Below are positions 44,276 through 61,875 of a stretch of 64,000 bases of DNA, one piece after another. Both the position numbers and the translations under genes were made by a program. Under the pieces are notes generated by a model. That model made no database searches. It was not told the origin of the DNA and saw only the letters and a program-made list of their open reading frames with translations. The stretch comes from Morchella semilibera (taxonomy: Eukaryota; Ascomycota; Pezizomycetes; Pezizales; Morchellaceae). Position 1 is the first letter of the stretch. The number at the start of each line of letters is the position of its first letter. Location of the stretch: assembly GCA_009192285.1 (NCBI GenBank), contig CM018603.1, forward strand, positions 6,693,613 through 6,757,612. Reading direction: 5' to 3'.

Positions 44276-44726
44276 TATCACGGAGCGAAGCGGAGTACAG
44301 GGCAAAGCGAGCCAAGGTACACTACCTAGGCGGGACGTAACGGTAATATTCGAGGCGGGCGGGGCGAGACTATGAAGCGAAGCGAAACGCGAGGTAGAAC
44401 CAGAGACCTGAGTATATTTCTTGAAGGACTACAAACTCCTGAAGATAGGAAGGTTGCGTGAAGAGGAAAGGAAAAGAACTATCTACAAGCGAGAACAAGA
44501 CCCCTATATATACACCACATGCCGACACGATGACTCATCCACGTAACCCTGTACAGAACCCCATGGAATCTCCCAAAACCCGTAACCCCGAACCCAACCT
44601 TATCTCCTAATCCCGAACCCTTATTACCGAACCAAACTCCGGCTTCCGAAACCCCAAGAACCTAGAAGAATCCCTGACTAATCCCTCTTCCCGCAACATC
44701 ATTAGACCATGTTCCACGCCGTGATA
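44276..44726 (-). repeat. E1 3' LTR
   Basis: 451 bp bounded by TATCACGG and CCGTGATA; matched end to end with the copy at 49870-50320. Contains TATATATA (promoter-like on the minus strand) and the AAGGTTGCGT segment (44450-44459) complementary to the primer-binding site. Confidence 0.93.
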
Positions 44727-44735
44727 GATATTAGG

Positions 44736-44743
44736 TCCCCTCT
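44736..44743 (-). other. E1 polypurine tract
   Basis: AGAGGGGA on the minus strand between the pol stop and the 3' LTR, the expected place for plus-strand priming. The same GAGGGGACCT core precedes the E2 and E3 3' LTRs. Confidence 0.6.
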
Positions 44744-44748
44744 GAGGC

Positions 44749-47700
44749 CTAAGTCCTCTTAGGCTTGCGTGGATATCGTTCGTGAAAGTCTTTGACTAAC
44801 TCAGGGGAGTTATCCACATCGCCGTAGGGTTGCCATGATGGCTTGTCGTAACCAGTATACCGAACTAGGTACTCAAGTCTTCCACGTCGTTTTCGTGAGT
44901 CCAAAATAGCATCAACTTCCCACTCTTGTTCGCCTTCGATCTCGACGGGGGGTGGGGGTATTTGTAATTGACCTGGTACGGGGTCGTTAACAGCAGGCGA
45001 GAGTAACGAAACATGAAACACTGGGTGAACTTTCATCGACGAGGGCAGTGTAAGTTCGTAGGCATAGGGACTGACGACGCGAGAGATCGGGTAGGGTCCA
45101 ACTTGCTTCCAGTCCAATTTCTTCGACGGTCTCTTTGTTAACAGATTGCGAGTGGACAGCCATACCTTATCCCCGATCGTATATCGTGGTGCTGGAGTAC
45201 GACTTGCATTGGCCGATTCTTCCTGTATCCGTTGAGCTCTAAACATCTCCGCCCGGAGGAAGTCAAACACTTCTGACATATCTCTTGCCATGGTATTAGC
45301 CTGGTCCTCGTTGGTAGTAATACCGTGTCGTAGAGGACCAAAATTCATGCGAGGATGACGACCATAGTTGGCTTCGAAGGGCGAGAGCTTGGTTGACTCA
45401 GAGACGTGATTATTGGTCGCGAACTCCGCCATGGGTAAATAAGTAGCCCAGTTGTCCTGTTGATAGTCCACGTAGCTGCGAAGATATTGCTCCATAATAG
45501 CATTAATTCTTTCAGTCTGACCATCTGTCTGAGGATGAAACGCGGTGGAATAACGAGGAGAAATTTCGAGGCACTCGCATAGTGATTTCCAGAAATCTGA
45601 GGTAAATTGTGTACCACGATCTGAAACTATCTTTTCCGGTAGGCCATGTAGCTTCCAAACGTTCTCTAAATACATTCGGGCAACGTCCCGAGCTCCTGAT
45701 TCTTCAGTGCATGGAATAAAGTGTCTCATTTTGGTGAGCCTATCAACGACAACGAGAATAGCATTATAATTATTGCTGAGAGGTAGTCCTGTAACGAAGT
45801 CCATTGAAACATCCGTCCATGGTGCCTTAGGAACTGAGAGAGGGCGAAGAACTCCTTGAGGGGCATTGCGATTTGCTTTGCTTCGGCGGCAGATATGACA
45901 ATTCATAACATAGCGGTCAGTATATTTCCGCATGTTCGGCCAGTAGTATTCGCGACTAAGTAACTCTAGGGTCTTTGCTCTACCCGGGTGTCCTGCTGAT
46001 GGTTTATCGTGATACTCCTGAAGAAGTCTAAGTTGTAACTCCTCGTGTTCTGGTACGAAGAGTTTGCGTCGATAAAGAAGAAGTCCGTCTTCATTTTCCG
46101 CGCATTCGGCAAGTGAAATTTGTTTCGATTGTTTCGTGCCATCTTTTAGCATCGTAAGTACCTTGCTCGGAAAACTGTCTTCTTGGTAAGCTTTCGTAAA
46201 TAAATCTTGAACAGTGGACGTTCCTTCAGCGGGTTCATTTGCCAAAGAACCCGCCAACAAACTTAGCTTATTATCCAAATTTTTTCTCTTCAGCACGGTC
46301 TGATACTGATACGCAAGGCGTTCATCCCCCTCCTTAGGGAGATCCCCTGATCGCCTGGTGAGTGCATCCGGCTTTCCTCCTTGTTTTCCTGGACGAAACT
46401 GAATAACGAAGTCGAAGCGTGATAAAAATTCTGACCAGCGGGTTTGCCGACGATTTAGTAGTTTGGTTGACATAAAATATTCAAGGTTCCTATGATCTGT
46501 TAAGACCTTGATAGGATATGAGGCTGTTTCTAAAAAATAGCGCCATTCTTCAAATCCCCGAATAATTGCCAATAGTTCTTTATCGTATATCTCATAATTA
46601 CATTCCGCTGGTGTATGTTTCTTGGAGAAAAAGGCGACTGGGTGCAGGATTCCTTCGTTATCCCTTTGTGACATAATGGCGGCCGAAACGTAGTCAGAGG
46701 CGTCTGTTTCCACAATAATTTCCCGATCGGGGTCGAAATGTCTAAGAATGGGAGCAGTGGTAAATGCGAACTTGAGATCCTGAAACGCTCTTTCCGTCTT
46801 GTCTGTCCATTTGAATACCACTCCTGTCCTTGTTAGAGCGGTCAGGGGAGATACTACCCTTGAATACGCGTAGATGAATCGTCGGTAGAAGTTCGCAAAC
46901 CCTAGGAATTCTTGCACATCTTTCAGGCAAGTGGGGGTTTCCCAATTCCTTATGGTAGCCACTTTGGACTCATCCATCTTGATCCCTTCGGGTGTAAGAA
47001 CAAAGCCGAGATACATGGTTTCTTTAACGTGCCATTCACATTTCTCTGGTTTAAGATAAACCTGATTTTTATCGAGTATCCGAAGTATCTTGTCGACGTG
47101 TTCTTTGTGTTCTTCAAGGGTGGCCGAGTATATAAGTATGTCATCGAGATATGCGGTTGCAAAGTGATCAAGATAAGGGCGAAGCATGTCGTTGACCCAA
47201 TGTTGGAATGCAGCGGGGGCGTTGGTTAACCCAAAGGGCATAACGGTGTATTCAAAGTGTCCATACCGCGTCCTAAATGCTGTTTTCCACTCATCTCCTT
47301 CCCTGATTCTCAACTGATGATAACCATTACGGAGATCTAGCTTGGTAAAGTACTTGGCGGAGGAGATACCCATAAACGTCTCTGGTGTTAGTGGGAGAGA
47401 ATGTCGATTCTTCACCGTTACTGCGTTCAACTTTCTATAGTCAACACAAAGTCGGAGGGAGCCATCAGCCTTTTTGACAAACAGTACCGGGGCGCCTGCG
47501 GGAGAAGTACTATGTCGAATCCGTCCATTGAATAGATACTCTGCTAGATAATCCCGGAGTGCCTGGAGTTCCAGTCGGGTCATCCCGTACATGGGTCCGA
47601 ACGGTACAGTTTTCCCTTCCTGTATATCAATAGAAAGGTCGTATTCGTTGCGATGAGGAGGAAGTTTGGAGGCATTCGGTTCACTGAGAAGATGTAAATA

Positions 47701-48315
47701 TTGATGATGTTCGACGGGGACGAGTACTCGGGGGTCCTTAGGCATTTGGACCAGGAGATCATCGAGGGCTTTGAGCGTGGTAGAGTAGAGTTTCATTCCT
47801 TTTCTTTTCTTGTTGATGAGTCTATGGAATGCGTAGGAGGTAATAACGGAGATATTTGTTGTTGGTTTAGCGGGGGGTTCGATAGAGATCCCTTTAGCAA
47901 TAATCTTTGTGTGAGTGAGGGAACAATTCTTTATACAGCTTGAAGAATTGAATTGTATTTCGTTATCGGCGGGTAGTATTGTTGTTGCATGCCTGCGCAT
48001 CCAAGGGAGGCCCATAACTATAGGATAATGACCTAATTGAGTAACAAAAAAGGGAGCATCCTCTCTGTGGCCATTAATATCGAGACTGAGGATGACCTTA
48101 TGGGTGACCTTTCCTGATTCAATGGGTCTGCCGTCTATTACGTCTATGTGTCGGGGGAGAATAAGAGGAATAGTCTTAAGTTTGTGGTGGCATACGAAGT
48201 CCTTATCTATGAACGCGTATCCTGAGGCGCCAGTATCGATGAGAGCATATGATGGAATAAAAGAATCTTTATTTTGAGAAATTGAGCAAGTTACGACTAA
48301 TTGATTCCCATCCAT
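44749..48315 (-). CDS. E1 Pol polyprotein: protease, RT, RNase H, integrase, chromodomain (1188 aa)
   Basis: Intact. Aspartic protease with DTGASG at about residues 27-32; reverse transcriptase with VDYRKLN at about 291 and catalytic YLDD at about 388; RNase H beginning near ETDASD at about 535; integrase HHCC zinc finger (HDKPSAGHPG ... CHICRRSK) from about 770, DDE residues in MDFVTGLP (about 837), SDRGTQF (about 899) and the following PQTDGQTERINAIME; chromodomain at about 1130-1185 (EWEVDAILDSRKRRGR, YLVRYTGYDKPSW). All catalytic residues are present. The chromodomain, known in chromoviruses to direct integration to heterochromatin, fits the nesting seen here. The ATG (48313-48315, MDGNQL) is conserved in E2 and E4; the frame is -1 relative to gag and is open across the gag stop. 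Confidence 0.95.
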   Translation of the reverse strand: MDGNQLVVTCSISQNKDSFIPSYALIDTGASGYAFIDKDFVCHHKLKTIPLILPRHIDVIDGRPIESGKVTHKVILSLDINGHREDAPFFVTQLGHYPIVMGLPWMRRHATTILPADNEIQFNSSSCIKNCSLTHTKIIAKGISIEPPAKPTTNISVITSYAFHRLINKKRKGMKLYSTTLKALDDLLVQMPKDPRVLVPVEHHQYLHLLSEPNASKLPPHRNEYDLSIDIQEGKTVPFGPMYGMTRLELQALRDYLAEYLFNGRIRHSTSPAGAPVLFVKKADGSLRLCVDYRKLNAVTVKNRHSLPLTPETFMGISSAKYFTKLDLRNGYHQLRIREGDEWKTAFRTRYGHFEYTVMPFGLTNAPAAFQHWVNDMLRPYLDHFATAYLDDILIYSATLEEHKEHVDKILRILDKNQVYLKPEKCEWHVKETMYLGFVLTPEGIKMDESKVATIRNWETPTCLKDVQEFLGFANFYRRFIYAYSRVVSPLTALTRTGVVFKWTDKTERAFQDLKFAFTTAPILRHFDPDREIIVETDASDYVSAAIMSQRDNEGILHPVAFFSKKHTPAECNYEIYDKELLAIIRGFEEWRYFLETASYPIKVLTDHRNLEYFMSTKLLNRRQTRWSEFLSRFDFVIQFRPGKQGGKPDALTRRSGDLPKEGDERLAYQYQTVLKRKNLDNKLSLLAGSLANEPAEGTSTVQDLFTKAYQEDSFPSKVLTMLKDGTKQSKQISLAECAENEDGLLLYRRKLFVPEHEELQLRLLQEYHDKPSAGHPGRAKTLELLSREYYWPNMRKYTDRYVMNCHICRRSKANRNAPQGVLRPLSVPKAPWTDVSMDFVTGLPLSNNYNAILVVVDRLTKMRHFIPCTEESGARDVARMYLENVWKLHGLPEKIVSDRGTQFTSDFWKSLCECLEISPRYSTAFHPQTDGQTERINAIMEQYLRSYVDYQQDNWATYLPMAEFATNNHVSESTKLSPFEANYGRHPRMNFGPLRHGITTNEDQANTMARDMSEVFDFLRAEMFRAQRIQEESANASRTPAPRYTIGDKVWLSTRNLLTKRPSKKLDWKQVGPYPISRVVSPYAYELTLPSSMKVHPVFHVSLLSPAVNDPVPGQLQIPPPPVEIEGEQEWEVDAILDSRKRRGRLEYLVRYTGYDKPSWQPYGDVDNSPELVKDFHERYPRKPKRT

Positions 48316-48373
48316 ATCCTTCTCCGAAACCGAAAACCCAGAAACCGAGAGCTTAGAAAAGGTTTTTAACCGT

Positions 48374-48400
48374 CCCTGGAGTGAGCCACTCAGTCCAGGG
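48374..48400 (-). promoter_or_regulatory. Hairpin spanning the E1 gag stop codon
   Basis: On the minus strand CCCTGGA pairs with TCCAGGG (7 bp) around a 13-nt loop that holds the gag TGA (48390-48392). An alternative fold adds GAGTG/CACTC. A run of five T lies immediately 5'. Confidence 0.65.
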
Positions 48401-49805
48401 AAAAATCTTTTAACGCCTCATCGCCGGAGGTTTCTTCCTTCTCTTCTCCTCTAATATCTGCCCTAGCTCCCCTCATCCTGGGGGCTGGGTTCCTGGGAGC
48501 CGGCGCCTGCGGGCATTCCCTAACGAGGTGTCCTACACCTCCACAATAAAAACACCTATTCTCTACACGACGAGCCTCTCTTTCCTGAGGGTCCGGGCGG
48601 CCACGACCAGTTGACAAATCCATAGGAACTACTCCTCCTGGTGTGTGGGACAGATGAGCAGCAGGGGGGTTGGGGCGAGCGGGAGTTTGATAGCGGGGGG
48701 CCGAAGGAGGCGGGGCTGAGTACCGAGGTGCGGGGGCAGCAGGAGCCTGATAGCGGGGTGCGGGACGAGCTTGGGGTGCGGGGGCCTGGTAGCGAGGGCG
48801 GTAGCGAGCAGTAATTATCTGCTGCTTGTTGTCCAAGCGTTGGAGGATGATAGCGAGTTCGGTAACGGTGGCGGGGGTCTCCTCGTGGATCATGAGCTTG
48901 GTGAGTTCCTCGCTCAGACCTTCCATGAGGGCTTCCACATTGGCAGTCTCTCCCATTCCAGCTTCGGCGGCATAGCGTTGGAACTCGGCGAAGTACTCCG
49001 AGAAGGGACGATTGAGTTGCCTGATTCTTCTAAGGGCGCGACGGGCAGTACCTACCTGGTCTGGGTCGCCGAATGCTGTATTTAAGATTTCAAAGAACCT
49101 CTCCATGGAGGGGAGGTTGATCCCGGTAGTGGTAATATATGGCATGAATTGGTCAGCGGCAGGGCCTTCCAAGCGAGAGATGGCATAGCTTAATTGATTC
49201 TGGAGGGTGGGGTATCGGTCGGCATTGCCCAAGAGCTTGAGTTTCAGCATATTTTGGAACTGTGGAAGTCCCTTCCTGTTTCCTCGATATTTCTCTGGGT
49301 CCGGAAGCTTTTCTGACCTTTCAGGTCTTGGTTCTTGGGTAAGGGTAATGCCTTCTAAGAGGCGGTTGCGGCGTCGAGAAGGGGGTGGCGGAATAGGGTC
49401 CGCTGCCGGGGGCGGAGGAGGAGGCAGGAGTGCAATCTGGGCGGCGAGTGCGGTCTCGGCGGATTGCGTTGCTTGTCTTTCGATTATTACCTGTTCTTGG
49501 AGGGTGGTGACCTGAGCTTCAAGAACTGTTATCTGTCCCTCTAGCTCTTGATTCTCCCTTCCCAACTTTGTAAGTTTCTTGGTCCATTCTTTTCGAGCTT
49601 CATCCCCATCCTCTATTTCTTCCTGCCAATTGATCATGAGTTGCTTGACGGCTTGTTGAGCGCGGAACATTAGGTCATGAATTTTCTTGGCTTCCTCACT
49701 GGCATCGTCCGCGACGGTGGGGTGTGTGGCCACGAATGTATCAAGATCCCTTTGGAGGATCTCGTAGAGTTCTTCTGACTCTTCCATAGGGTCTGCGTGC
49801 GACAT
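48390..49805 (-). CDS. E1 Gag (471 aa)
   Basis: Capsid-nucleocapsid precursor, intact. N-terminal coiled coil (about residues 60-125, with LEGQITVLEAQVTTLQEQV), a Ty3-type retrotransposon gag domain at about 165-310 (EKLPDPEKYRGNRKGLPQF, YAISRLEGPAADQFMPYI, NTAFGDPDQVGTARRAL), a Pro/Ala/Arg-rich linker, and one CCHC zinc knuckle at about residue 415 (CFYCGGVGHLVREC). The stop is 74 nt before the pol ATG. Confidence 0.93.
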   Translation of the reverse strand: MSHADPMEESEELYEILQRDLDTFVATHPTVADDASEEAKKIHDLMFRAQQAVKQLMINWQEEIEDGDEARKEWTKKLTKLGRENQELEGQITVLEAQVTTLQEQVIIERQATQSAETALAAQIALLPPPPPPAADPIPPPPSRRRNRLLEGITLTQEPRPERSEKLPDPEKYRGNRKGLPQFQNMLKLKLLGNADRYPTLQNQLSYAISRLEGPAADQFMPYITTTGINLPSMERFFEILNTAFGDPDQVGTARRALRRIRQLNRPFSEYFAEFQRYAAEAGMGETANVEALMEGLSEELTKLMIHEETPATVTELAIILQRLDNKQQIITARYRPRYQAPAPQARPAPRYQAPAAPAPRYSAPPPSAPRYQTPARPNPPAAHLSHTPGGVVPMDLSTGRGRPDPQEREARRVENRCFYCGGVGHLVRECPQAPAPRNPAPRMRGARADIRGEEKEETSGDEALKDFSLD

Positions 49806-49857
49806 GGTGGATAACAGGATATTGTATCGATGTATGTAGTGTAGGTTGGCGTTGGAG

Positions 49858-49867
49858 ACGCAACCTT
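49858..49867 (-). other. E1 primer-binding site, self-priming type
   Basis: AAGGTTGCGT on the minus strand, 2 nt (CT) inside the 5' LTR. It is the exact complement of ACGCAACCTT in the LTR (minus-strand reading of 50044-50053), about 55 nt downstream of TATATATA. It does not begin TGG, as a tRNA 3'-end site would. Confidence 0.7.
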
Positions 49868-49869
49868 AG

Positions 49870-50320
49870 TATCACGGAGCGAAGCGGAGTACAGGGCAAA
49901 GCGAGCCAAGGTACACTACCTAGGCGGGACGTAACGGTAATATTCGAGGCGGGCGGGGCGAGACTATGGAGCGAAGCGAAACGCGAGGTAGAACCAGAGA
50001 CCTGAGTATATTTCTTGAAGGACTACAAACTCCTGAAGATAGGAAGGTTGCGTGAAGAGGAAAGGAAAAGAACTATCTACAAGCGAGAACAAGACCCCTA
50101 TATATACACCACATGCCGACACGATGACTCATCCACGTAACCCTGTACAGAACCCCATGGAATCTCACAAAACCCGTAACCCCGAACCCAACCTTATCTC
50201 CTAATCCCGAACCCTTATTACCGAACCAAACTCCGGCTTCCGAAACCCCAAGAACCTAGAAGAATCCCTGACTAATCCCTCTTCCCGCAACATCACTAGA
50301 CCATGTTCCACGCCGTGATA
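49870..50320 (-). repeat. E1 5' LTR
   Basis: 451 bp, same boundaries as the 3' LTR. Its minus-strand reading has a TATATATA box and then the putative RNA start region ACGCAACCTT. Confidence 0.93.
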
Positions 50321-50986
50321 TTACGAGATTTATGATAAAGAGTTGTTGGCCATTATTCGGTGCTTCGAGGAATGGAGACCCCACCTGGAGACAGCTCAAT
50401 TTCAAGTCAAAGTACTTACAGATCATCGCAATCTTGAGTACTTTATGTCAACCAAATTGCTGAACAGGCGTCAAACTCGTTGGGCAGAGTTTTTATCCCG
50501 GTTTAATTTTATTATTCAGTATAGGCCGGGAAAGCAGAGGAGGAAGGTTGATATTTTGACTAGAAGGACTAAGGATTTATTGAAGGAAGGGGATGAGAGA
50601 TTAGAGCAACAAAGCCGAGTGGTTTTGAAGAAGGAGAATCTGGATTCTAAAATAGGTTTGTTAGCGGGCTCTTTGTCAAATGAACCCGCTGAAGGATCGT
50701 CTCCCATACTTGATTTATTTAATAAAGCTTACCAGTGTGATAGCTTTCCAAGTAAAGTCCTATCCATGCTGCGGGATGGCATTCGACAGTCGAAAGAGAT
50801 TTCGTTGGCTGAGTGCAAGAAAAGTGAAGAGTGGTTATTGCTTTATCGGAACACCCTTTATGTCCCTAATTTTGACGAACTTAAGCTCTATCTGCTACGA
50901 GAGTATCACGATAAATCTTCGGCTGGACATCCTGGACGATCAAAGACTTTAGAACTTCTCAGCCGGGAATATTATTGGCCGACCAT
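50321..50986 (+). pseudogene. B: pol fragment (RNase H to integrase zinc finger) of an E2-family element
   Basis: 666 nt that align without length change to E2 positions 55131-55796. Encodes [20 protein letters not shown], then the zinc-finger start up to ...YYWP. Its left end abuts the E1 LTR and its right end the E2 LTR directly, so it is the remnant of an older element cut at both sides. Its Pol frame is open and has CGA where E2 has a stop at 55708. Confidence 0.85.
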
Positions 50987-51620
50987 TGTCCCGGTGTCTT
51001 GGCATCTGTCCCGACAGTCTGGTAGGTGATGCATGGTTATGATTGTTGTGGTAATGTTAAGCGAGAGCGGGGAACGCGAGTTGGAGGTTGTTGTCATTAG
51101 GTTCTAGGAGGTTCGATGGCGTGATGGATTGGTAATGTAGAATAGCGGAGATGGTGGGGAGGATTATGAGGTGTGGTAGCGACGGGTTTCTATGAGGTTC
51201 TATAAGCGAGAGTGTGAGTCATAGCGGACTAGTGGAGGAGGTGTGTTAAATAGCGGGGATAGATGTTTTCCTTTGTTCTTTCTTTCTTTCCTCTCTGTCT
51301 CGTCTTCCTGTTATCTCGGTACATAGGAATCTACTCCTATTTCTAAAGCCATAGCCTCTCGTACCAAAGACTTGCTCCTCTGACAAGAGGAGACTCATAG
51401 CATCCCTCATCGTTCTCATTGAGGTCCCTTCAGTCCTCACTCTCCCTGCTCTGTGCTCTTGTGCCCTTGCTCTTGCCTTTGTCTTCGCCGGTGCCTGTGC
51501 TTGTGCCTGCCCTGCGTTGTCCCTGTCTTCATCGGCCCCCTCGTCGAGTACACTGTGCTCCTCGAGTCCCTCTGCGTCATCATTGTCATCTTCTTCTTTG
51601 CGTCGGGTTACTCCGTCACA
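50987..51620 (+). repeat. E2 5' LTR
   Basis: 634 bp, TGTCCC...GTCACA. Contains TTAAATAG followed about 45 nt later by GTCTCGTCTT (51297-51306), which is complementary to the primer-binding site. Confidence 0.92.
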
Positions 51621-51622
51621 CT

Positions 51623-51632
51623 AAGACGAGAC
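51623..51632 (+). other. E2 primer-binding site, self-priming type
   Basis: AAGACGAGAC, 2 nt (CT) after the LTR end, exact reverse complement of GTCTCGTCTT at 51297-51306. Same position and spacing as in E1 and E4 although the sequence differs from E1. Confidence 0.7.
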
Positions 51633-51681
51633 CATGCTCACTCGACTAGCACAGTCCGAGTTCCTCGTACCACAGTTCACC

Positions 51682-53348
51682 ATGACCGCCCCTGCTACCA
51701 ATGCATTTGATTATCAAAAGCTCCATACGGATCTCGAAGGGTTCTTTGTCGCTCACCCTGAAGTGGACCTCACCGCAACGGAAGAAGCGAAGCAAGCGTA
51801 TGCCCTCCTCCAAAGAGCGCACGGAGGGGTCCAGCAATATGCGGTCGACATCACCACCCATCATTCCGAAACCGAACAAGGTCGGGCCGAGTTCCGCAAA
51901 GAAATCCAGGGACTACGGGCTAAGATCAAGAAGCTGCAAGAAGGAGTCAAAGGAGGTTTAGAGGAGCTTCACGACGACTTAATCAAACCATCCAAATCCG
52001 AGAAGCTACCCGACCCGGAGAAATACCGGGGCGATCGCAAGACTCTCAGGACCTTCCAGAGACAACTTCAGATTAAGCTTACGGCCAATTTGGATCGCTT
52101 TCCTACCGCGGCTCAATAACTTGCGTATTCTATTTCTCGACTGGAAGGACCGGCGGCGGATCAATTTTTAGTTTATATTACAGATGAAGGAATCGCTCTC
52201 GATTCCATGTCGGAGTTTTTTTGAAATTTTGGATAATGCTTTTGGGGATCCAGACCGCGCCGCCACTGCTGCTCGGAATCTGAGGGAGATCAGGCAGCGC
52301 CAACGTACCTTTTCTGAGTACTTTGCAGAGTTTCAGTGATATGCTGCCGACTCTGAGTTCAACGAAGCGGCTAAGATTGAATGTTTGTTGGAAGGACTTA
52401 ACCAGGACCTAATGGCCCTGNTAGTATATGACCGTGATGATTGGGTTCTTTCTTTGTATGCCATATCCGGATTCGGATGCAAGCAGTATGAGTAATAAAT
52501 AAATAAATAAAAATCTCGATCGTTTTCCTACCTCGGCCCAACAATTGGCATATTCTATTTCTCGACTGGAGGGACCGGCGGCGGATCAATTTTTAGTTTA
52601 TATTACGGATGAAGGAATTGCTCTTGATTCCATGGCGGAGTTTTTTGAGATTTTGGATAATGCTTTTGGGGATCCAGACCGTGCCGCCACTGCCGCTCGT
52701 AATTTGAGGGAGATCAGACAGCGCCAACGTACTTTTTCTGAATACTGTGCAGAGTTTCAGCGATATGCTGCCGACTCTGAGTTCAACGAGGCGGCTAAGA
52801 TTGAATGCTTGTTGGAGGGACTTAACCAGGACCTAATGGCCCTGATGATTCAGAATGAAACACCAACTCCGATTAAGGACTGCGAGCTGCTCCTCCAACG
52901 TCTTGATAACAAACAACGGGTGCTACAGGCCAGGATGGGGAGATTTCGTTTTCAGATTCCAAGTGCCCCTGCTCCGCGTTCCTTTGCTCCTCGTCCCCCC
53001 GTTGCACCAGCAACATCCCCAGTCGTACGCGGAACACCCCAACCACCACCGAAGAGTGCTACGCCAGTGGCCCACCCTTCCTATACTCCAGGGGGAGCTG
53101 TCCCTATGGACTTATCTAATAGTTATCGTCGCCCAGATCCCAGAGAAAGGGAGGCACGTCGTGTAGAGAATCGTTGTTATTATTGCGGGGGGGTTGGACA
53201 TTTGGTTAGAGACTGTAAGCTTTCGCCCTTGGGAAGGGCAGCACCCAGGATGAGGGGAGCGTTGTTGGAAGCAAGGAAGGAAAAGAAGGAAAAGGAAGAG
53301 CAGGTATTGTCGGATGAGGAGGAGTTAAAAGATTCGTCCCTGGCCTAG
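51682..53348 (+). pseudogene. E2 gag, broken and partly duplicated
   Basis: Starts at the conserved MTAPATNAF (51682). A first stretch runs to a TAA at 52117-52119 (CAA in the second copy), then has an extra T in a T-run (52216-52222) and a TGA at 52337-52339 (CGA in the second copy). After the N at 52421 and about 100 nt of unrelated AT-rich DNA with a (TAAA)n patch, a second copy of the same gag segment begins at about 52522 and runs cleanly to the TAG at 53346-53348, including the zinc knuckle CYYCGGVGHLVRDC. The second copy lacks the gag N-terminus. Either a collapsed assembly of two copies or a real rearrangement. Confidence 0.85.
52421..52421. other. Single ambiguous base (N)
   Basis: The only N in the window, sitting exactly where the first gag copy stops matching. 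It probably marks a contig join. Confidence 0.9.
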
Positions 53349-53367
53349 GCGGCATATAGCCCAGGGA
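53337..53367 (+). promoter_or_regulatory. Hairpin spanning the E2 gag stop codon
   Basis: TCCCTGG (53337-53343) pairs with CCAGGGA (53361-53367); the gag TAG (53346-53348) is in the loop. Confidence 0.65.
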
Positions 53368-53424
53368 CCTCCAAAGGTTTTCTCTCAGGTGTCTATTTCA
53401 ACGTTTTCAGTATCAGAAGGGGAG

Positions 53425-56400
53425 ATGGATGGGAATCAACTGATTGTATTGTGTTCTATTTCACAAAATAAAAAATCTATTGTACCCACTTATGCCTTGA
53501 TTGATACTGGAGCGTCGGGATATGCATTTATTGATGAAGACTTTGTGCGTCGCCATGAATTAAAGATGAAAAATCTGAGGACTGAGAGGGAGATTGATGT
53601 GATTGATGGAAGGCCTATTGAATCTGGGAAGGTGACCAGAAAGGTGATGTTGGAATTGGAAATTAATGGACATGTGGAAGAGTGTCCTTTCTTTGTTACG
53701 AAGCTGGGACATTACCCGATTGTGATGGGAATACCTTGGCTGAGGAAGCATGGAGTTGTGATTGATAGTGGAAGGAATGAGATTCGCTTCCAATCATCAG
53801 TATGTCTTGAACATTGCATAGCCAATCGCAAACCTATTGTCGCTCGAGGAATTTCTACCCCACCGCCAGAAAGACCTGTTACAAATATTCCGGCAATTAC
53901 TCCTCGATCGTTTAAGAAACTTTCTCGAGATTCTACGGTGCAAATTTACTCGACTACCCTCTATGCTGTTAATAAAATGTTGGAAATGCCTGTCAACCCT
54001 GATGGAAGGATCCCAATTGATTATCAATGCTTTCGACAATTGTTCGATGAAACTAATGCATCGCGACTGCCACCACATCGTCCCTACGATCATGAAATAA
54101 AGTTACAGGACGGGACGGTACCACCCTTTGGCCCTATGTATAGCATGTCACGGGAGGAGTTGAAGGCATTGAGAGATTATTTGGCCGACAATTTGAAGAA
54201 ATGATTTCTTCGGTCCAGCAACTCTCCAGCTGGGGCTCCTGTTCTATTTGTGAAGAAAGCTGATGGATCTCTTCGCTTATGCGTAGACTACCGGAAGCTA
54301 AATGCTATTACAGTCAAAGATCGATATCCTCTTCCACTTACACCAGAAACTATGGCCAACCTAGCCCGGGCTAATTATTTTACCAAGCTGGATTTACGGT
54401 GGGGATATAATCAGATTAGGATCAAGGAGGGGGATGAATGGAAGACGGCTTTTAGAACTCGGTATGGGCATTGGGAATATCTGGTAATGCCTTTTGGGTT
54501 GACAAATGCTCCTGCTACTTTCCAACGCTGGATTAATGATATCCTTCGGCCCTTTTTGGACCGCTGTGCTACTGCTTATCTCGACGATATCCTTATTTAT
54601 TCGGAGACCCGGGAGCAACACCAACAGGATGTGCAACAAGTACTGGAAGCCCTGGAGGCCAACGAGGTTCATCTGAAACCCGAGAAATGTGAATTCAGTG
54701 TGCAGGAAACTAAATATTTGGGAATGATTTTAACTCCTGGAGGAATGAAGATGGACCCTGCTAAGGTACAGACAGTTGTGGATTGGGAGGCACCGAAGAT
54801 AGTAAAGGAGGTTCAGGAATTTCTTGGGTTTGCTAATTTTTATCGACGTTTTATTTATGCCTATTCCAGAGTGGCTCGACCGTTGACGACCTTGACGAAA
54901 AAACACGTACGGTTTGAATGGACCCAGAAGGTTGAACAAGCCTTCCAGAAACTTAAGACTGCTTTTATTACCGCTCCCGTATTGATGCACCCTGATCCTG
55001 AAAGAGAATTTATCGTGGAAACCGATGCGTCGGATTATGTGTCGGCAGGGATACTATCACAACGAGATGACGAAGGAGTACTTCACCCAGTTGCCTTCTT
55101 CTCCAAGACACATTCGCCAGCGGAATGCAATTATGAGATTTACGATAAGGAGTTGTTGGCTATTATTCGCTGCTTCGAGGAGTGGAGACCTCATTTGGAG
55201 ACAGCTCAATTCCAAGTCAAAGTACTTACCGATCACCGCAATCTTGAGTACTTTATGTCGACGAAATTGCTGAACAGGCGTCAAACTCGTTGGGCGGAGT
55301 TCTTGTCTAGGTTTAATTTTGTTATTCAATACAGGCCGAGAAAGCAGGGGAGAAAAGTTGATATTTTGACTAGAAGGCCTAAAGACTTACCGAAGGAAGG
55401 AGATGAGAGACTGGAGCAACAGAGCCGGGTGGTATTGAAGAAGGAGAATTTAGATGCAAAGATAGGTTTGTTCGCGGGTTCTTTGTCAAATGAACCCGCT
55501 GAAGGATCGTCTCCTGTACTTGACTTATTTAATAAAGCTTACCAGTGTGATAGCTTTCCGAGCAAAGTTCTATCCATGCTTCGGGACGGCGTTCGACAAT
55601 CGAAAAAGATTTCGTTGGGCGAGTGCAAGGAAAGTGAGGAGGGATTATTGCTTTATCGGAACACCCTTTATGTCCCTGATTTTGACGAACTCAAACTCTA
55701 TCTGTTATGAGAGCATCACGATAAACCTTCGGCTGGACATCCTGGACGATCAAAGACTTTGGAACTTCTCAGCCGGGAAAATTATTGGCCGACCATGCGG
55801 AAATATACAGACCGCTATGTCCAGAACTGCCATACCTGTCGGCGAAGCAAGACGAACCATAATCCCCTACAAGGAGTTTTGCGCCCATTATTGGTACCCA
55901 AAGGACCCTGGACAGATGTCAAGATCGATTTTGTAACGGGACTTCCGGAGAGTCATGGATTTAATGCTATCTTAGTAGTGGTGGATCGGTTGACAAAGAT
56001 GAAGCATTTAATTCCCACGACGGAAAGTGTTAACGCCAGGAATCCGTCCCGTCTATACCTGGAGCAGGTATGGAAGATACATGGGTTACCCGAGACTATT
56101 GTTTCTGATCGAGGGACACAGTTTACTGCTGAGTTTTGGAAAGCTCTCTGCGAACGGCTGGAAATTGCCCCTCGCTATTCTACGGCATTTCATCCTCAGA
56201 CCGATGGGCAAACAGAAAGGATCAATGCGATTATGGAGCAGTACCTCCGCAGTTATGTATCATATCAACAAGATAACTGGGTGGACTTTTTACCTCTGGC
56301 TGAATTTGCTACTAATAATCATATTTCCGAAACTACTACTATGTCCCCCTTTCAGGCTAACTATGGGAGACATCCGAGAATGACATTTGGACCCTTACAG

Positions 56401-56985
56401 CACGGGCAGACGGTGAATGAGGACCAGGCTAATGGGTTGGCACGAGAGATGTCTCAGGTGTTTGATTTCCTGAAAAGCGAGATGTTTAAGGCGCAGAAGA
56501 TACAGGAGGAGATGGCCAACTTACACCGGACTCCGGCACCTCGATATGCGGTCGGCGATTTTGTCTGGCTTGCGACTAGAAATATTGAAACAAAACGACC
56601 CGCGAAAAAACTTGACTGGAAACAAATTGGCCCCTACCCGGTTAAACGAATTGTGAGCCCTTATGCCTATGAGCTGGAATTACCTGCCTCTATGAAAATA
56701 CATCCGGTATTCCATGTTTCATTATTATCGCCGACAGTTGAGAATCCTATTCCCGGACAAATTGTTGAACCACCCCCACCGGTGGAAGTTGAAGGGGACA
56801 CTGAATGGGAAGTAGCGGAAATATTGGATTCGCGGAAGAGGGGGCGACAGGTGGAGTACTTGGTTAGATATGCTGGATATGAAGAACCGTCCTGGCAACC
56901 TTCGAATGACTTGGAACATAGTCCTGATATTAGAAAAGCATTTCACGACCAATATCCTTTGAAACTTCAGCCTATCAGGAGCTAG
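53425..56985 (+). pseudogene. E2 pol: protease to chromodomain with two in-frame stops
   Basis: One continuous frame with TGA at 54202-54204 (just before the reverse transcriptase) and TGA at 55708-55710 (before the integrase zinc finger; CGA in B). Otherwise complete: DTGASG, VDYRKLN, YLDD, ETDASD, CHTCRRSK, the DDE motif set, and a chromodomain (EWEVAEILDSRKRGRQVEYL). Start at the conserved MDGNQL ATG, 76 nt after the gag stop and in the +1 frame. The second stop is a C-to-T change; the first could be TGG-to-TGA or GGA-to-TGA. Confidence 0.93.
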
Positions 56986-56991
56986 GCCCTT

Positions 56992-56999
56992 GGAGGGGA
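56992..56999 (+). other. E2 polypurine tract
   Basis: GGAGGGGA, 7 nt before the 3' LTR, with the same following CCT as in E1. Confidence 0.55.
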
Positions 57000-57006
57000 C
57001 CTGATC

Positions 57007-57638
57007 TGTCCCGACGTCTTGGCATCTGACCCGACAGTTCGGTAGGCGATGTACTGTTGTGGTTGTTAGGGTAATGTTAAGCGAGAGTAGTGAGTGCGAG
57101 GGGGAGGTTGTCATCATTGGGTTCTGGGAGGTTCGATGGCGTGATGGATTGGTAATGTAGAATAGTGGGAATGGTGGGGAGGATTACGAGGTGTGGTAGC
57201 GATGGGTTTCTATGAGGTTCAATGAGCGAAAGTGTGAGTCATAGCGGATTAGTGAAGGAGGAGTGTTAAATAGCGGGGATAGATGTTTTCCTTAGTTCTT
57301 TCTTTCTTTTCTCTCTGTCTCGTCTTCCTGTTATCTCGGTACATAGGAATCTACTCCTATTTCCAAGCCATAGTCTCTCGTACCAAAAACTCGATCCTCT
57401 GACAAGAGGAAACTCATAGTATCTCTCATCGTTCTCGTTGAGGTCCATTCGGTCCTCACTCTTTCTACTCTGTGCTCTTGTGCCCTTGCTCTTGCCTTTG
57501 CCTTCGCCGGTGCCTGTGCTTGTGCCTGCCCGGTGCTGTTCCTGTCTTCATCGGCCTCCTCGTCGAGTAGACTGTGTTCCTCGAGTCTCTCTGCGTCATC
57601 ATTGTCACCTTCTTCTTTGCTCGGGTTACTCCGTCACA
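57007..57638 (+). repeat. E2 3' LTR
   Basis: 632 bp with the same ends as the 5' LTR. Visibly more substitutions between the two E2 LTRs than between the E1 LTRs, so E2 is older. Confidence 0.92.
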
Positions 57639-60256: not shown

Positions 60257-60266
60257 GTCTCGTCTT
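60257..60266 (-). other. E4 primer-binding site, self-priming type
   Basis: AAGACGAGAC on the minus strand, 2 nt inside the LTR, complementary to the LTR segment at 60574-60583; identical to E2. Confidence 0.7.
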
Positions 60267-60268
60267 AG

Positions 60269-60891
60269 TGTGACGGAGTAACCCGACGCAAAGAAGAAGA
60301 TGACAATAATGACGCAGAAGAACCTGAGGAGCACAGCCTGGGCGACGAGGAGGCCGACGAAGATAAAGGTAACACCGGGCAGGCACAAGCACAGGCACCA
60401 GCAAAGGCAAAGGCAAGGGCAAAGGCACAAGAGCACAGAACAGGGAGAGTGAGGACCGAATGGTCCTCAACGGGAACGATGAGAGGTACTATGGGTTTCC
60501 TCTTGTTAGAGGATCGAGGATTTGGTACAAGAGGCTATGGCTTAGAAATAGGAGTTAATTCCTAGATAACAGGAAGACGAGACAGAGAGAAAAGAAAGAA
60601 AGAACTAAGGAAAACATCTATCCCCACTATTTAACCCCTCCCCTCCATCAGTCCGCTACCACTCATACATCACCCCATAGAATCTCATAGAAACCCATTG
60701 CCACCACATCTCGTATTCCTCCCCACCATCTCGCTATTTACATTACCAATCCATCACGTTATCGAACCTCATAGAACCCGATGACGACACCCCCTTCTCA
60801 GCATACCTCCTCCTCGCTTAGCATTACCCCAACAATCATAACAGCACTTCAACTACCAAACCCTCGGGACCGATGCCAAGACACCGGGACA
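60269..60891 (-). repeat. E4 5' LTR
   Basis: 623 bp with ends TGTGACGG and CCGGGACA on the plus strand, homologous to the E2 LTRs in reverse. Confidence 0.9.
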
Positions 60892-61046: not shown

Positions 61047-61345
61047 CTATATTGACTAAAAGGATAAGAAGGTTGCATGAAGAGGAAAAAAACTATCTAC
61101 AAGCGAGGACAAGTCCTCTATATATACTAGTATCTCATATCCATACCCGATGCCTAACTCAAACATCCCTGTAGAGAAAAACATAGAACCTTCCAAGACC
61201 ATTTTATCCGAACCCACACTTATTCCTATTCCCAAATCCATATTCCCGAACGGAACCCTTGCAGCCAAAATTCAAAGAACATAAGAGAATCTCTGACTAA
61301 CCCCTCTTCCCGCAACATCGCCAAGTATCGCTCTACACTGTGATA
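61047..61345 (-). repeat. Old partial LTR of the E1/E3 family
   Basis: Resembles the inner half of the E1/E3 LTR: GGATAAGAAGGTTGC, ATCTACAAGCGAGGACAAG, CTCTATATATA, GACTAACCCCTCTTCCCGCA and a GTGATA end at 61340-61345. The outer half is missing or too changed. The left boundary is approximate. The 87 bp between it and E3 are unassigned. Confidence 0.7.
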
Positions 61346-61432: not shown

Positions 61433-61875
61433 TATCACGGAGCGAGGCGGAGGTTAAGGCGAAGCGAGCCAAGGTACACTACCTAGGCGGAACGTAACAG
61501 TAATATCCGATGTGGGGCGAGGCGAAACTATGAAGCAAGGCGAGGTACGAAATAGGGAACCGAATATATTCGAAAAGACTACAAACTCCTGTGGATAGGA
61601 AGGTTGCGTGAAGAGAGAAGGAAAAAAAGCTATCTACAAGCAAGCACAAGACCCATATATATAACACACCACCCGACCCGATGACTAACCCGAGTATCCC
61701 TGTACAGAATCCCCTAGAACCTCCCAACCCCTATATCCGAACCCGACCTTATCCCCTATATCCGAAACCCTATTTCCGAACTGAACCCCCGATACCGAAA
61801 CCCAAAGAACCTAAAGGAATCCCTGACTAATCCCTCTTCCCGCAATACCACTAGACCGCACTCCACGCCGTGATA
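61433..61875 (-). repeat. E3 3' LTR
   Basis: 443 bp, TATCACGG...CCGTGATA. Shares the AGGAAGGTTGCGTGAAGAG segment and TATATATA with E1 but is clearly diverged elsewhere. Confidence 0.92.

What the first reader, a model, noticed from the sequence alone, without database searches (positions are those of the whole stretch)
49858..51632. Two chromovirus families carry a Tf1-like self-priming signature instead of a tRNA primer site
Seen: in E1 the 10 nt starting 2 nt inside the 5' LTR (AAGGTTGCGT) are the exact complement of an LTR stretch (50044-50053) about 55 nt downstream of a TATA box. In E2 and E4 a different 10-mer (AAGACGAGAC) sits at the same place and is the exact complement of their own LTR (51297-51306; 60574-60583), also downstream of a TATA-like box. 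The pairing is kept while the sequence differs between families, which chance does not explain. Known: S. pombe Tf1 and related elements prime reverse transcription with the 5' end of their own RNA folded onto the primer site. Inference: these elements do the same, and the LTR match marks the RNA 5' end.
Basis: partly seen in the sequence, partly recalled or inferred. Interest (0 to 1): 0.8.

Follow-up and report, generated by a model that had tools for sequence, protein, structure and literature searches.

The report
Self-primed retrotransposons in a fungus
Jumping genes in this fungal genome appear to start copying themselves with the folded-back front end of their own RNA instead of a borrowed transfer RNA, a mechanism already known from fission yeast, here backed by matching changes in several families.

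Summary
E1, E2 and E4 carry a 10-nt primer site two bases after the 5' LTR, the perfect complement of an LTR stretch 49-53 nt below a TATA-like box. The anchored match occurs in 0, 30 and 18 of 4000 shuffled LTRs. Pairing is intact in 17 of 20 E1-type and 17 of 20 E2-type genome copies with both sites readable. Two E1-type copies keep it through a two-sided change. A third family, F512, has a different 9-nt pair at the same spacing, intact in 11 of 13. Two further duplexes, one a pseudoknot, match the Tf1 "pretzel" (passages of PMC10085805), though E4 shows one only weakly. E1/E2/E4 have no TGG in the first 24 nt after the LTR; 35 tRNAs examined do not pair better, but that set is incomplete. 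Self-priming is therefore well supported by sequence. RNA 5' ends are unmapped. It is the known habit of Tf1/sushi chromoviruses, so these are new members of a known kind. Less expected: primer/site letters differ completely between two close lineages, and the LTR end changes together with the bases after the primer.

The parts
49870..50320 (-). E1 5' LTR (TATCACGG...CCGTGATA, 451 bp)
   Evidence: many copies stop at the same ends
50099..50106 (-). E1 TATA box (TATATATA), 51-53 nt above the predicted RNA start
50044..50053 (-). E1 self-primer ACGCAACCTT, predicted first 10 nt of the RNA
49868..49869 (-). 2-nt spacer CT between E1 LTR and primer site
49858..49867 (-). E1 primer binding site AAGGTTGCGT (duplex P1 with 50044-50053)
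49905..49919 (-). E1 U5 arm of duplex P2 (GTAGTGTA-CC-TTGGC)
49836..49850 (-). E1 arm of duplex P2 after the primer site (GCCAA-CC-TACACTAC)
50038..50041 (-). E1 arm of short duplex P3 (TATC), pairs with the LTR-terminal GATA at 49870-49873
44276..44726 (-). E1 3' LTR, 99.3% identical to the 5' LTR, with the primer copy at 44450-44459
44749..48417 (-). E1 pol ORF (1222 aa): RT, RNase H, integrase, SH3_Tf2-1, chromodomain
48390..49865 (-). E1 gag ORF, stop to stop (Retrotrans_gag, CCHC)
50987..51620 (+). E2 5' LTR (TGTCCCGG...CCGTCACA, 634 bp)
51246..51253 (+). E2 TATA-like box TTAAATAG
51297..51306 (+). E2 self-primer GTCTCGTCTT
51623..51632 (+). E2 primer binding site AAGACGAGAC
51552..51566 (+). 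E2 U5 arm of duplex P2 (ACTGTGCT-CC-TCGAG)
51641..51655 (+). E2 arm of duplex P2 after the primer site (CTCGA-CT-AGCACAGT)
51309..51311 (+). E2 arm of P3 (TGT), pairs with the LTR-terminal ACA at 51618-51620
57007..57638 (+). E2 3' LTR (90% to the 5' LTR), primer copy at 57317-57326
60574..60583 (-). E4 self-primer GTCTCGTCTT
60257..60266 (-). E4 primer binding site AAGACGAGAC, two bases after LTR 60269-60891

Best explanation
E1, E2 and E4 are Ty3/gypsy chromoviruses that prime reverse transcription on their own RNA. Transcription starts in the LTR about 50 nt (38-59 in the families examined) below a TATA-like box, so that the RNA begins with the self-primer. The RNA 5' end folds onto the primer site two bases after the 5' LTR (duplex P1). 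A short nested duplex (P3) joins the last 3-4 LTR bases to the bases just after the primer. A longer crossing duplex (P2) joins U5 to the sequence after the primer site. The RNA is then cut after the primer, presumably by RNase H, and the primer is extended through the LTR end. Shown by sequence: complementarity, its conservation and covariation, the geometry, and lack of a TGG site in E1/E2/E4. Inferred: RNA start, cleavage, extension.
For: Exact 10-nt pairs two bases after the LTR. Sites kept letter for letter more often than the median LTR 10-mer: E1 primer in 33 of 35 copies and site in 15 of 16 (median 51%); E2 primer in 45 of 50 and site in 22 of 25 (median 60%). P1 fully paired in 17 of 20 (E1), 17 of 20 (E2) and 11 of 13 (F512) copies with both sites aligned. 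Two-sided change in P1 in L115 and L121. F512: a different 9-nt pair; 16 of 45 matches stop exactly at the inferred LTR end and 11 more within 3 bases. P2 cells paired 232/234 (18 of 21 copies usable), 295/299 (23 of 24) and 160/168 (14 of 15), with two-sided changes in all three families. Helix column pairs that vary on both sides stay paired in 3/3, 1/1 and 2/2, against 13%, 22% and 8% of other both-variable pairs. The free minimum-energy fold of all six leaders examined contains P1. RNAduplex finds P2 unprompted in 5 of 6 leaders. The primer starts at a pyrimidine/purine step after a C/T-rich tract in all 7 LTRs examined.
Against: No RNA data. In E4 the best unprompted duplex is not P2 and is not better than shuffles (158 and 281 of 1000). 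On a cruder measure two-sided changes are not clearly enriched in the helices: 5 of 23 E1 pairs against 256 of 1690 background pairs, 0 of 23 in E2 (464 of 4848) and 0 of 19 in F512 (160 of 1980). Conservation is not unique: 22, 35 (of 462) and 41, 65 (of 645) 10-mers are kept as well as the E1 primer, E1 site, E2 primer and E2 site. Some copies have broken P1 (E1: L127, L123, L047, L027; E2: L047, L017, L116; F512: L120, L131). E2/E4 complementarity alone is only modestly unlikely. P3 is absent from the free folds of L115 and L109. Only 35 distinct tRNAs were compared.
Confidence: 0.93

Rival explanations
1. A host tRNA primes: its 3' end or an internal arm pairs with the site, and the LTR match is incidental.
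For: Usual for Ty3/gypsy elements. The tRNA set examined is incomplete: 62 places found (lower bound), 40 fetched, 39 predicted by ARAGORN, 35 distinct; nine isotypes are missing. The E2 and E4 stretches share 7-nt exact runs with a tRNA-Thr and tRNA-Ala prediction, and with CCA added the best agreement with a tRNA 3'-terminal 12-mer over six offsets is 9 of 12 (E2, E4) and 7 of 12 (E1).
Against: E1, E2 and E4 have no TGG (complement of tRNA CCA) in the first 24 nt after the LTR. Best agreement with the 10-nt site is 7 of 10 (E1) and 8 of 10 (E2/E4). A T-arm-plus-site pattern has 0 hits for E1 (control 1) and 3 for E2 (control 2), none of the three predicted as a tRNA. It does not explain the covariation with the LTR. 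tRNA-Lys(CTT) has AAGGTTGCG in the same sense as the E1 site, so that stretch cannot pair with it.
Confidence: 0.04
2. The complementarity serves another RNA function (leader structure for packaging, dimer formation or translation), not priming.
For: The leader can form P1, P2 and P3, and such structures could have other roles.
Against: The pair sits at the primer-site position two bases after the LTR in three families and at the predicted RNA 5' end, and no TGG-type primer site is seen in E1/E2/E4.
Confidence: 0.02
3. Chance complementarity.
For: 10-nt self-complementary pairs at free spacing are common: 11 of 14 gag-upstream loci gave at least one, two of them inside the gag frame; E2 alone is 128 of 5000.
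Against: Fixed position, three families, conservation and covariation.
Confidence: 0.01

Closest known systems
Tf1/Tf2 of Schizosaccharomyces pombe (self-priming, three-duplex 'pretzel')
   Same: Chromodomain Ty3/gypsy type; primer site complementary to the presumed RNA 5' end; one central and two flanking duplexes (passages of PMC10085805; domains).
   Different: Primer 10 or 9 nt here (Tf1 has 11, recalled). E1 and F512 LTRs do not end in CA. RNA start and cleavage were shown for Tf1 (recalled; papers not read), not here.
Tj1 of S. japonicus and Tosmo/Tcry elements
   Same: Self-priming proposed from LTR/primer-site complementarity and pretzel folds (passages of PMC4600332 and PMC10085805).
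   Different: The legend in PMC10085805 says the 5' LTR always ends in CA in the elements drawn there; here only E2/E4 do.
Tcn1-clade chromoviruses of mosses and club-mosses
   Same: Most predicted to self-prime; cluster with Tf1/sushi (passages of PMC6317226).
   Different: Plant hosts; another study found evidence of neither tRNA priming nor self-priming for its club-moss copy SM-Tcn1 (passages of PMC2864245).
Chromoviruses of Morchella sextelata (protein P0008 and others)
   Same: Highest identity to the E1 RT among the 120 proteins listed, 76%; joins E1+E2 with 97/91 support.
   Different: Their LTRs and primer sites could not be read here.

Membership tests
Chromovirus (Ty3/gypsy with chromodomain) | gag, protease, RT-RNase H, then integrase with C-terminal chromodomain | tested here: met
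   Pfam hits in E1 (gag, RT, RNase H, integrase, chromo; no protease family reached the cut) and, over several ORFs, in E2 (gag, protease, RT, RNase H, integrase, chromo). Of E4 only a protease-bearing ORF was scanned.
Tf1/sushi group | No TGG primer site complementary to tRNA CCA ends | tested here: met
   No TGG in the first 24 nt after the LTR in E1, L115, E2, E4; in F512 (L109, L110) a TGG occurs only at positions 18-21 of the 24, after the 9-nt site.
Tf1/sushi group | Primer site complementary to the LTR stretch at the RNA 5' end | tested here: met
   Complementarity met; its location at the RNA 5' end is only inferred, from TATA distance and pyrimidine/purine start.
Tf1/sushi group | Three-duplex 'pretzel' leader | tested here: met
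   P1 and P2 in E1, L115, E2, F512; P3 by sequence in the three families, in the free folds of E1, E2, E4 and L110 but not of L115 and L109; in E4 P2 is not the best duplex. Potential only; no probing.
Tf1/sushi group | Pol falls in the fungi/vertebrate cluster | tested here: inconclusive
   In a 19-row RT tree (E1, E2 and 17 of 120 listed proteins) fungi plus vertebrates are split from plants and a green alga at 100/99; the fungal rows do not form one group because of a long Rhizoctonia branch; Tf1, sushi and an outgroup were not included. PF24626 SH3_Tf2-1 is present in E1 and E2.
Tf1/sushi group | RNA 5' end, cleavage after the primer and extension demonstrated | not testable with these tools
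   No RNA or cDNA data.
Fission-yeast Tf1/sushi elements | 5' LTR ends in CA (as stated for those elements) | tested here: not met
   E1 ends GATA and F512 ends TAGA; E2/E4 end in CA. I saw no statement that this defines the whole group.
tRNA-primed Ty3/gypsy elements | Primer site complementary to a host tRNA | tested here: inconclusive
   Not met for 35 distinct tRNA predictions; set incomplete.

The most novel reading that the evidence does not exclude
The priming module evolves as a unit that can be replaced wholesale. The close lineages E1 and E2 (RT 75% identical) have entirely different primer/site letters but the same layout: primer, 2-by-2 loop, LTR-end duplex P3, 2-nt spacer, site, and a crossing duplex P2 of 7-8 plus 5-7 pairs around a 2-by-2 loop. 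The LTR's own 3' end (GATA, ACA or AGA) changes in step with the bases after the primer (TATC, TGT or TCT), so the priming fold constrains the ends that integrase must recognise.
Probability: 0.45. Interest if true: 0.55.

Novelty: new member of a known kind. Interest (0 to 1): 0.36.

Why it matters
It extends sequence-supported self-priming, with compensatory changes, to several chromovirus families of a fungus whose nearest named relatives are Pezizales (truffle and morel kin, inferred). It offers natural pairs of variants in duplexes P1 and P2, which could test directly whether the pretzel fold, not its letters, is what reverse transcriptase needs. It also predicts RNA start sites to the base.

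Tried and rejected
10-nt self-complementary pairs found de novo in 14 gag-upstream loci (11 gave at least one, L108 none, L117 and L118 only masked runs; at most 8 shown per locus): only the pair in L115, next to an LTR end, and the E2-type pair in L111 were kept. The look-alike pairs in L107 and L114 lie inside the gag frame, and about 2.6 such pairs per locus are expected by chance (my estimate, not a call). That scan and the 8-nt scan both missed the 9-nt F512 pair, which I saw by eye and whose LTR end one search then bore out. The 748-codon-gag family's LTR and primer site were not resolved. A protein named Tf2 (P0070) looked like a fused fungal gene named by similarity and was left out of the tree. 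Rows dropped: identical copies; copies whose primer did not align (E1 L027; E2 L053, L015, L111, L003; F512 L058, L011), although L111's pair is intact by direct search; P2 not readable in E1 L126, L026, L024, E2 L015, F512 L140. Papers: passages only of PMC4600332, PMC10085805, PMC2864245, PMC6317226 and PMC5006619; others only as search listings. Levin 1995 is not held; Butler 2001 was seen only as a citation. One search found no paper with Morchella, retrotransposon and primer binding together; that covers this library only.

Full report
What was checked. The finding's coordinates were read directly and searched. E1 lies on the minus strand, with its 5' LTR at 49870-50320, a 2-nt CT spacer and AAGGTTGCGT at 49867-49858; the exact complement lies at 50053-50044. 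E2 lies on the plus strand with LTR 50987-51620, a CT spacer and AAGACGAGAC at 51623-51632; the complement is at 51297-51306. E4 (minus) has 60266-60257 and 60583-60574. The E1 and E2 3' LTRs hold the same LTR site (44450-44459, 57317-57326). E1 and E2 are chromoviruses by Pfam: gag, RT, RNase H, integrase with SH3_Tf2-1 and chromodomain; a protease family was matched in E2 and E4 but not in E1.

Chance. With the site fixed two bases after the LTR, its complement turned up in 0 of 4000 (E1), 30 of 4000 (E2) and 18 of 4000 (E4) dinucleotide shuffles of the LTR. If any place in the first 24 nt counts, 15, 128 and 138 of 5000 shuffles do as well. So E1 stands alone, while E2/E4 need further support because their LTR is C/T-rich.

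Genome copies. The window lies in a 56.8-Mb assembly that could be searched. Searches with the LTR-plus-site stretches gave 40 (E1), 64 (E2) and 75 (E4) matches, lower bounds since only 40 candidates were scored each time. I fetched 30 E1 and 30 E2 loci, six loci of a related LTR, and later stretches upstream of 14 chosen gag hits out of 150 and 20 short stretches of chosen copies. After identical rows were dropped, 21 E1-type, 24 E2-type and 15 F512 copies carried the primer-site region. Both sites could be aligned in 20, 20 and 13 of them, and P1 was fully paired (G-U allowed) in 17, 17 and 11. Broken or unreadable ones are named under evidence against and Tried and rejected. The primer and site were kept letter for letter in 33 of 35 and 15 of 16 E1 copies against a median of 51% for all LTR 10-mers, and in 45 of 50 and 22 of 25 E2 copies against 60%. 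Conservation alone is not unique: 22 and 35 of 462, and 41 and 65 of 645 10-mers (the sites themselves included) were kept as well.

Covariation in P1. L115 and L121 have ACGCAATCTT with AAGATTGCGT: the C-G pair of E1 has become T-A on both sides. A third family, called F512 here after its 512-codon gag frame, has AGGCAACGT with ACGTTGCCT (9 nt), again two bases after the LTR. I inferred the LTR end GTTAGA from the layout; in the later copy search 16 of 45 matches stop at exactly that base (query position 538) and 11 more within 3 bases after it.

Extra duplexes. Beyond P1, a duplex P2 joins U5 to the sequence after the site: GTAGTGTA-CC-TTGGC with GCCAA-CC-TACACTAC in E1, ACTGTGCT-CC-TCGAG with CTCGA-CT-AGCACAGT in E2, GTATATC-TT-GAGCC with GGCTC-CC-GATATAC in F512 copy L109. 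Paired cells are 232 of 234 (18 of 21 copies usable), 295 of 299 (23 of 24) and 160 of 168 (14 of 15). Two-sided changes occur in E1 (A-T in twelve copies, T-A in six; G-C to A-T in L020), in E2 (A-T in eighteen, G-C in two, G-T in three) and in F512 (A-T in three, C-G in nine, unpaired in two). RNAduplex found P2 unprompted in five of six leaders (E1, L115, E2, L109, L110); shuffled after-site sequence did as well in 3, 13, 19, 5 and 6 of 1000, and shuffled R/U5 in 17, 36, 92, 19 and 13 of 1000. In E4 another duplex scored best and was not better than shuffles (158 and 281 of 1000). P2 crosses P1, making a pseudoknot (E1 RNA positions 1-10/187-196 and 135-149/204-218). The free minimum-energy folds of all six leaders contain P1. 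Those of E1, E2, E4 and L110 also contain a short P3 joining the LTR's last bases to those after the primer; those of L115 and L109 do not. By sequence P3 is GATA with TATC in E1, ACA with TGT in E2 and AGA with TCT in F512 (whose counts take each pair on both strands and in overlapping loci).

Controls on covariation. Among column pairs that vary on both sides (at least two copies off the commonest letter on each), the helix pairs stay at least 85% paired in 3 of 3 (E1), 1 of 1 (E2) and 2 of 2 (F512), against 337 of 2551, 325 of 1499 and 72 of 911 other pairs (24, 32 and 15 rows). A cruder count shows no clear excess: 5 of 23 E1 helix pairs had a two-sided change against 256 of 1690 background pairs, 0 of 23 in E2 against 464 of 4848, and 0 of 19 in F512 against 160 of 1980; I think one change in E2 was lost there to an alignment gap, and one F512 pair was set aside by the pairing threshold. 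I rely on the first because it conditions on variability, but the numbers are small.

RNA start. In the seven LTRs examined the primer starts with a purine after a pyrimidine, at the end of a stretch with 16-20 C/T in 20. A TATA-like box lies 51-53 (E1), 57-59 (L115), 49-51 (E2, E4) and 38-40 nt (three F512 copies) upstream. This fits an RNA that begins with the primer. It is an inference.

tRNA alternative. No TGG lies in the first 24 nt after the LTR of E1, L115, E2 or E4. Against 35 distinct tRNA predictions from 40 fetched of 62 found, the best agreement with the 10-nt site was 7 (E1) and 8 (E2/E4), and with a tRNA's 3'-terminal 12 nt 7 and 9 of 12. A T-arm pattern had no E1 hit (control 1) and three E2 hits (control 2), none a tRNA by ARAGORN. 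Nine isotypes are missing from the set, which keeps this open in principle.

Placement. In a 19-row tree of E1, E2 and 17 of the 120 listed proteins, E1 and E2 are sisters (95/92), next to a Morchella sextelata protein (97/91), and fungi plus vertebrates are split from plants and an alga (100/99); Tf1, sushi and an outgroup are absent. The best named relatives of a host gene (Sua5) are Rhizina and truffle kin at about 57-63% identity; unnamed proteins reach 73-91% (best 120 of 7995 listed). The host is thus probably one of the Pezizales; this is inferred.

Known or new. Self-priming with a three-duplex pretzel is described as common to the Tf1/sushi chromoviruses (passages of PMC10085805; PMC4600332; PMC6317226). 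The present elements fit that group in mechanism. What I did not see in those passages is the change of the LTR's own end in step with the bases after the primer, and LTRs of this group ending in TA or GA. Verdict: observation right, interpretation supported, kind known.

Noticed in passing
44276-50320 and 50987-57638: Neither E1 nor E2 has matching 5-bp flanks (CGTAA/ACAAT; ACCAT/GAGAG), so no target-site duplication is seen; E1's 5' side abuts RNase H/integrase-like sequence of an older plus-strand element (50320-50986) that E2 then cuts.
   Followed up: partly
49870-50320; L110: E1 and F512 LTRs start TATCACGG and end in GATA or TAGA, not TG...CA.
   Followed up: partly
61433-61875 and L127: A further E1-like element (E5): 3' LTR in the window, probable 5' LTR outside it, with a one-base mismatch in its primer site.
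   Followed up: partly
61063-61319: Degenerate E1-like LTR piece with ATGCAACCTT at the primer position, next to E4.
   Followed up: no
52087-52844: Direct repeats of 204 and 135 nt spaced 424-425 nt inside E2, overlapping its gag-side ORFs.
   Followed up: no
G000 contigs C9/C10, C12/C13, C21/C22: Matches recur at near-identical coordinates in contig pairs, as if both haplotypes were kept.
   Followed up: no
L107, L108, L114, L119: A gag family with a frame of up to 748 codons whose LTR ends and primer site could not be resolved; might serve as a control.
   Followed up: partly
L069, L096, L097: tRNA-Lys(CTT) carries AAGGTTGCG, the same sense as the E1 primer site and thus complementary to the E1 self-primer; probably chance.
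   Followed up: no
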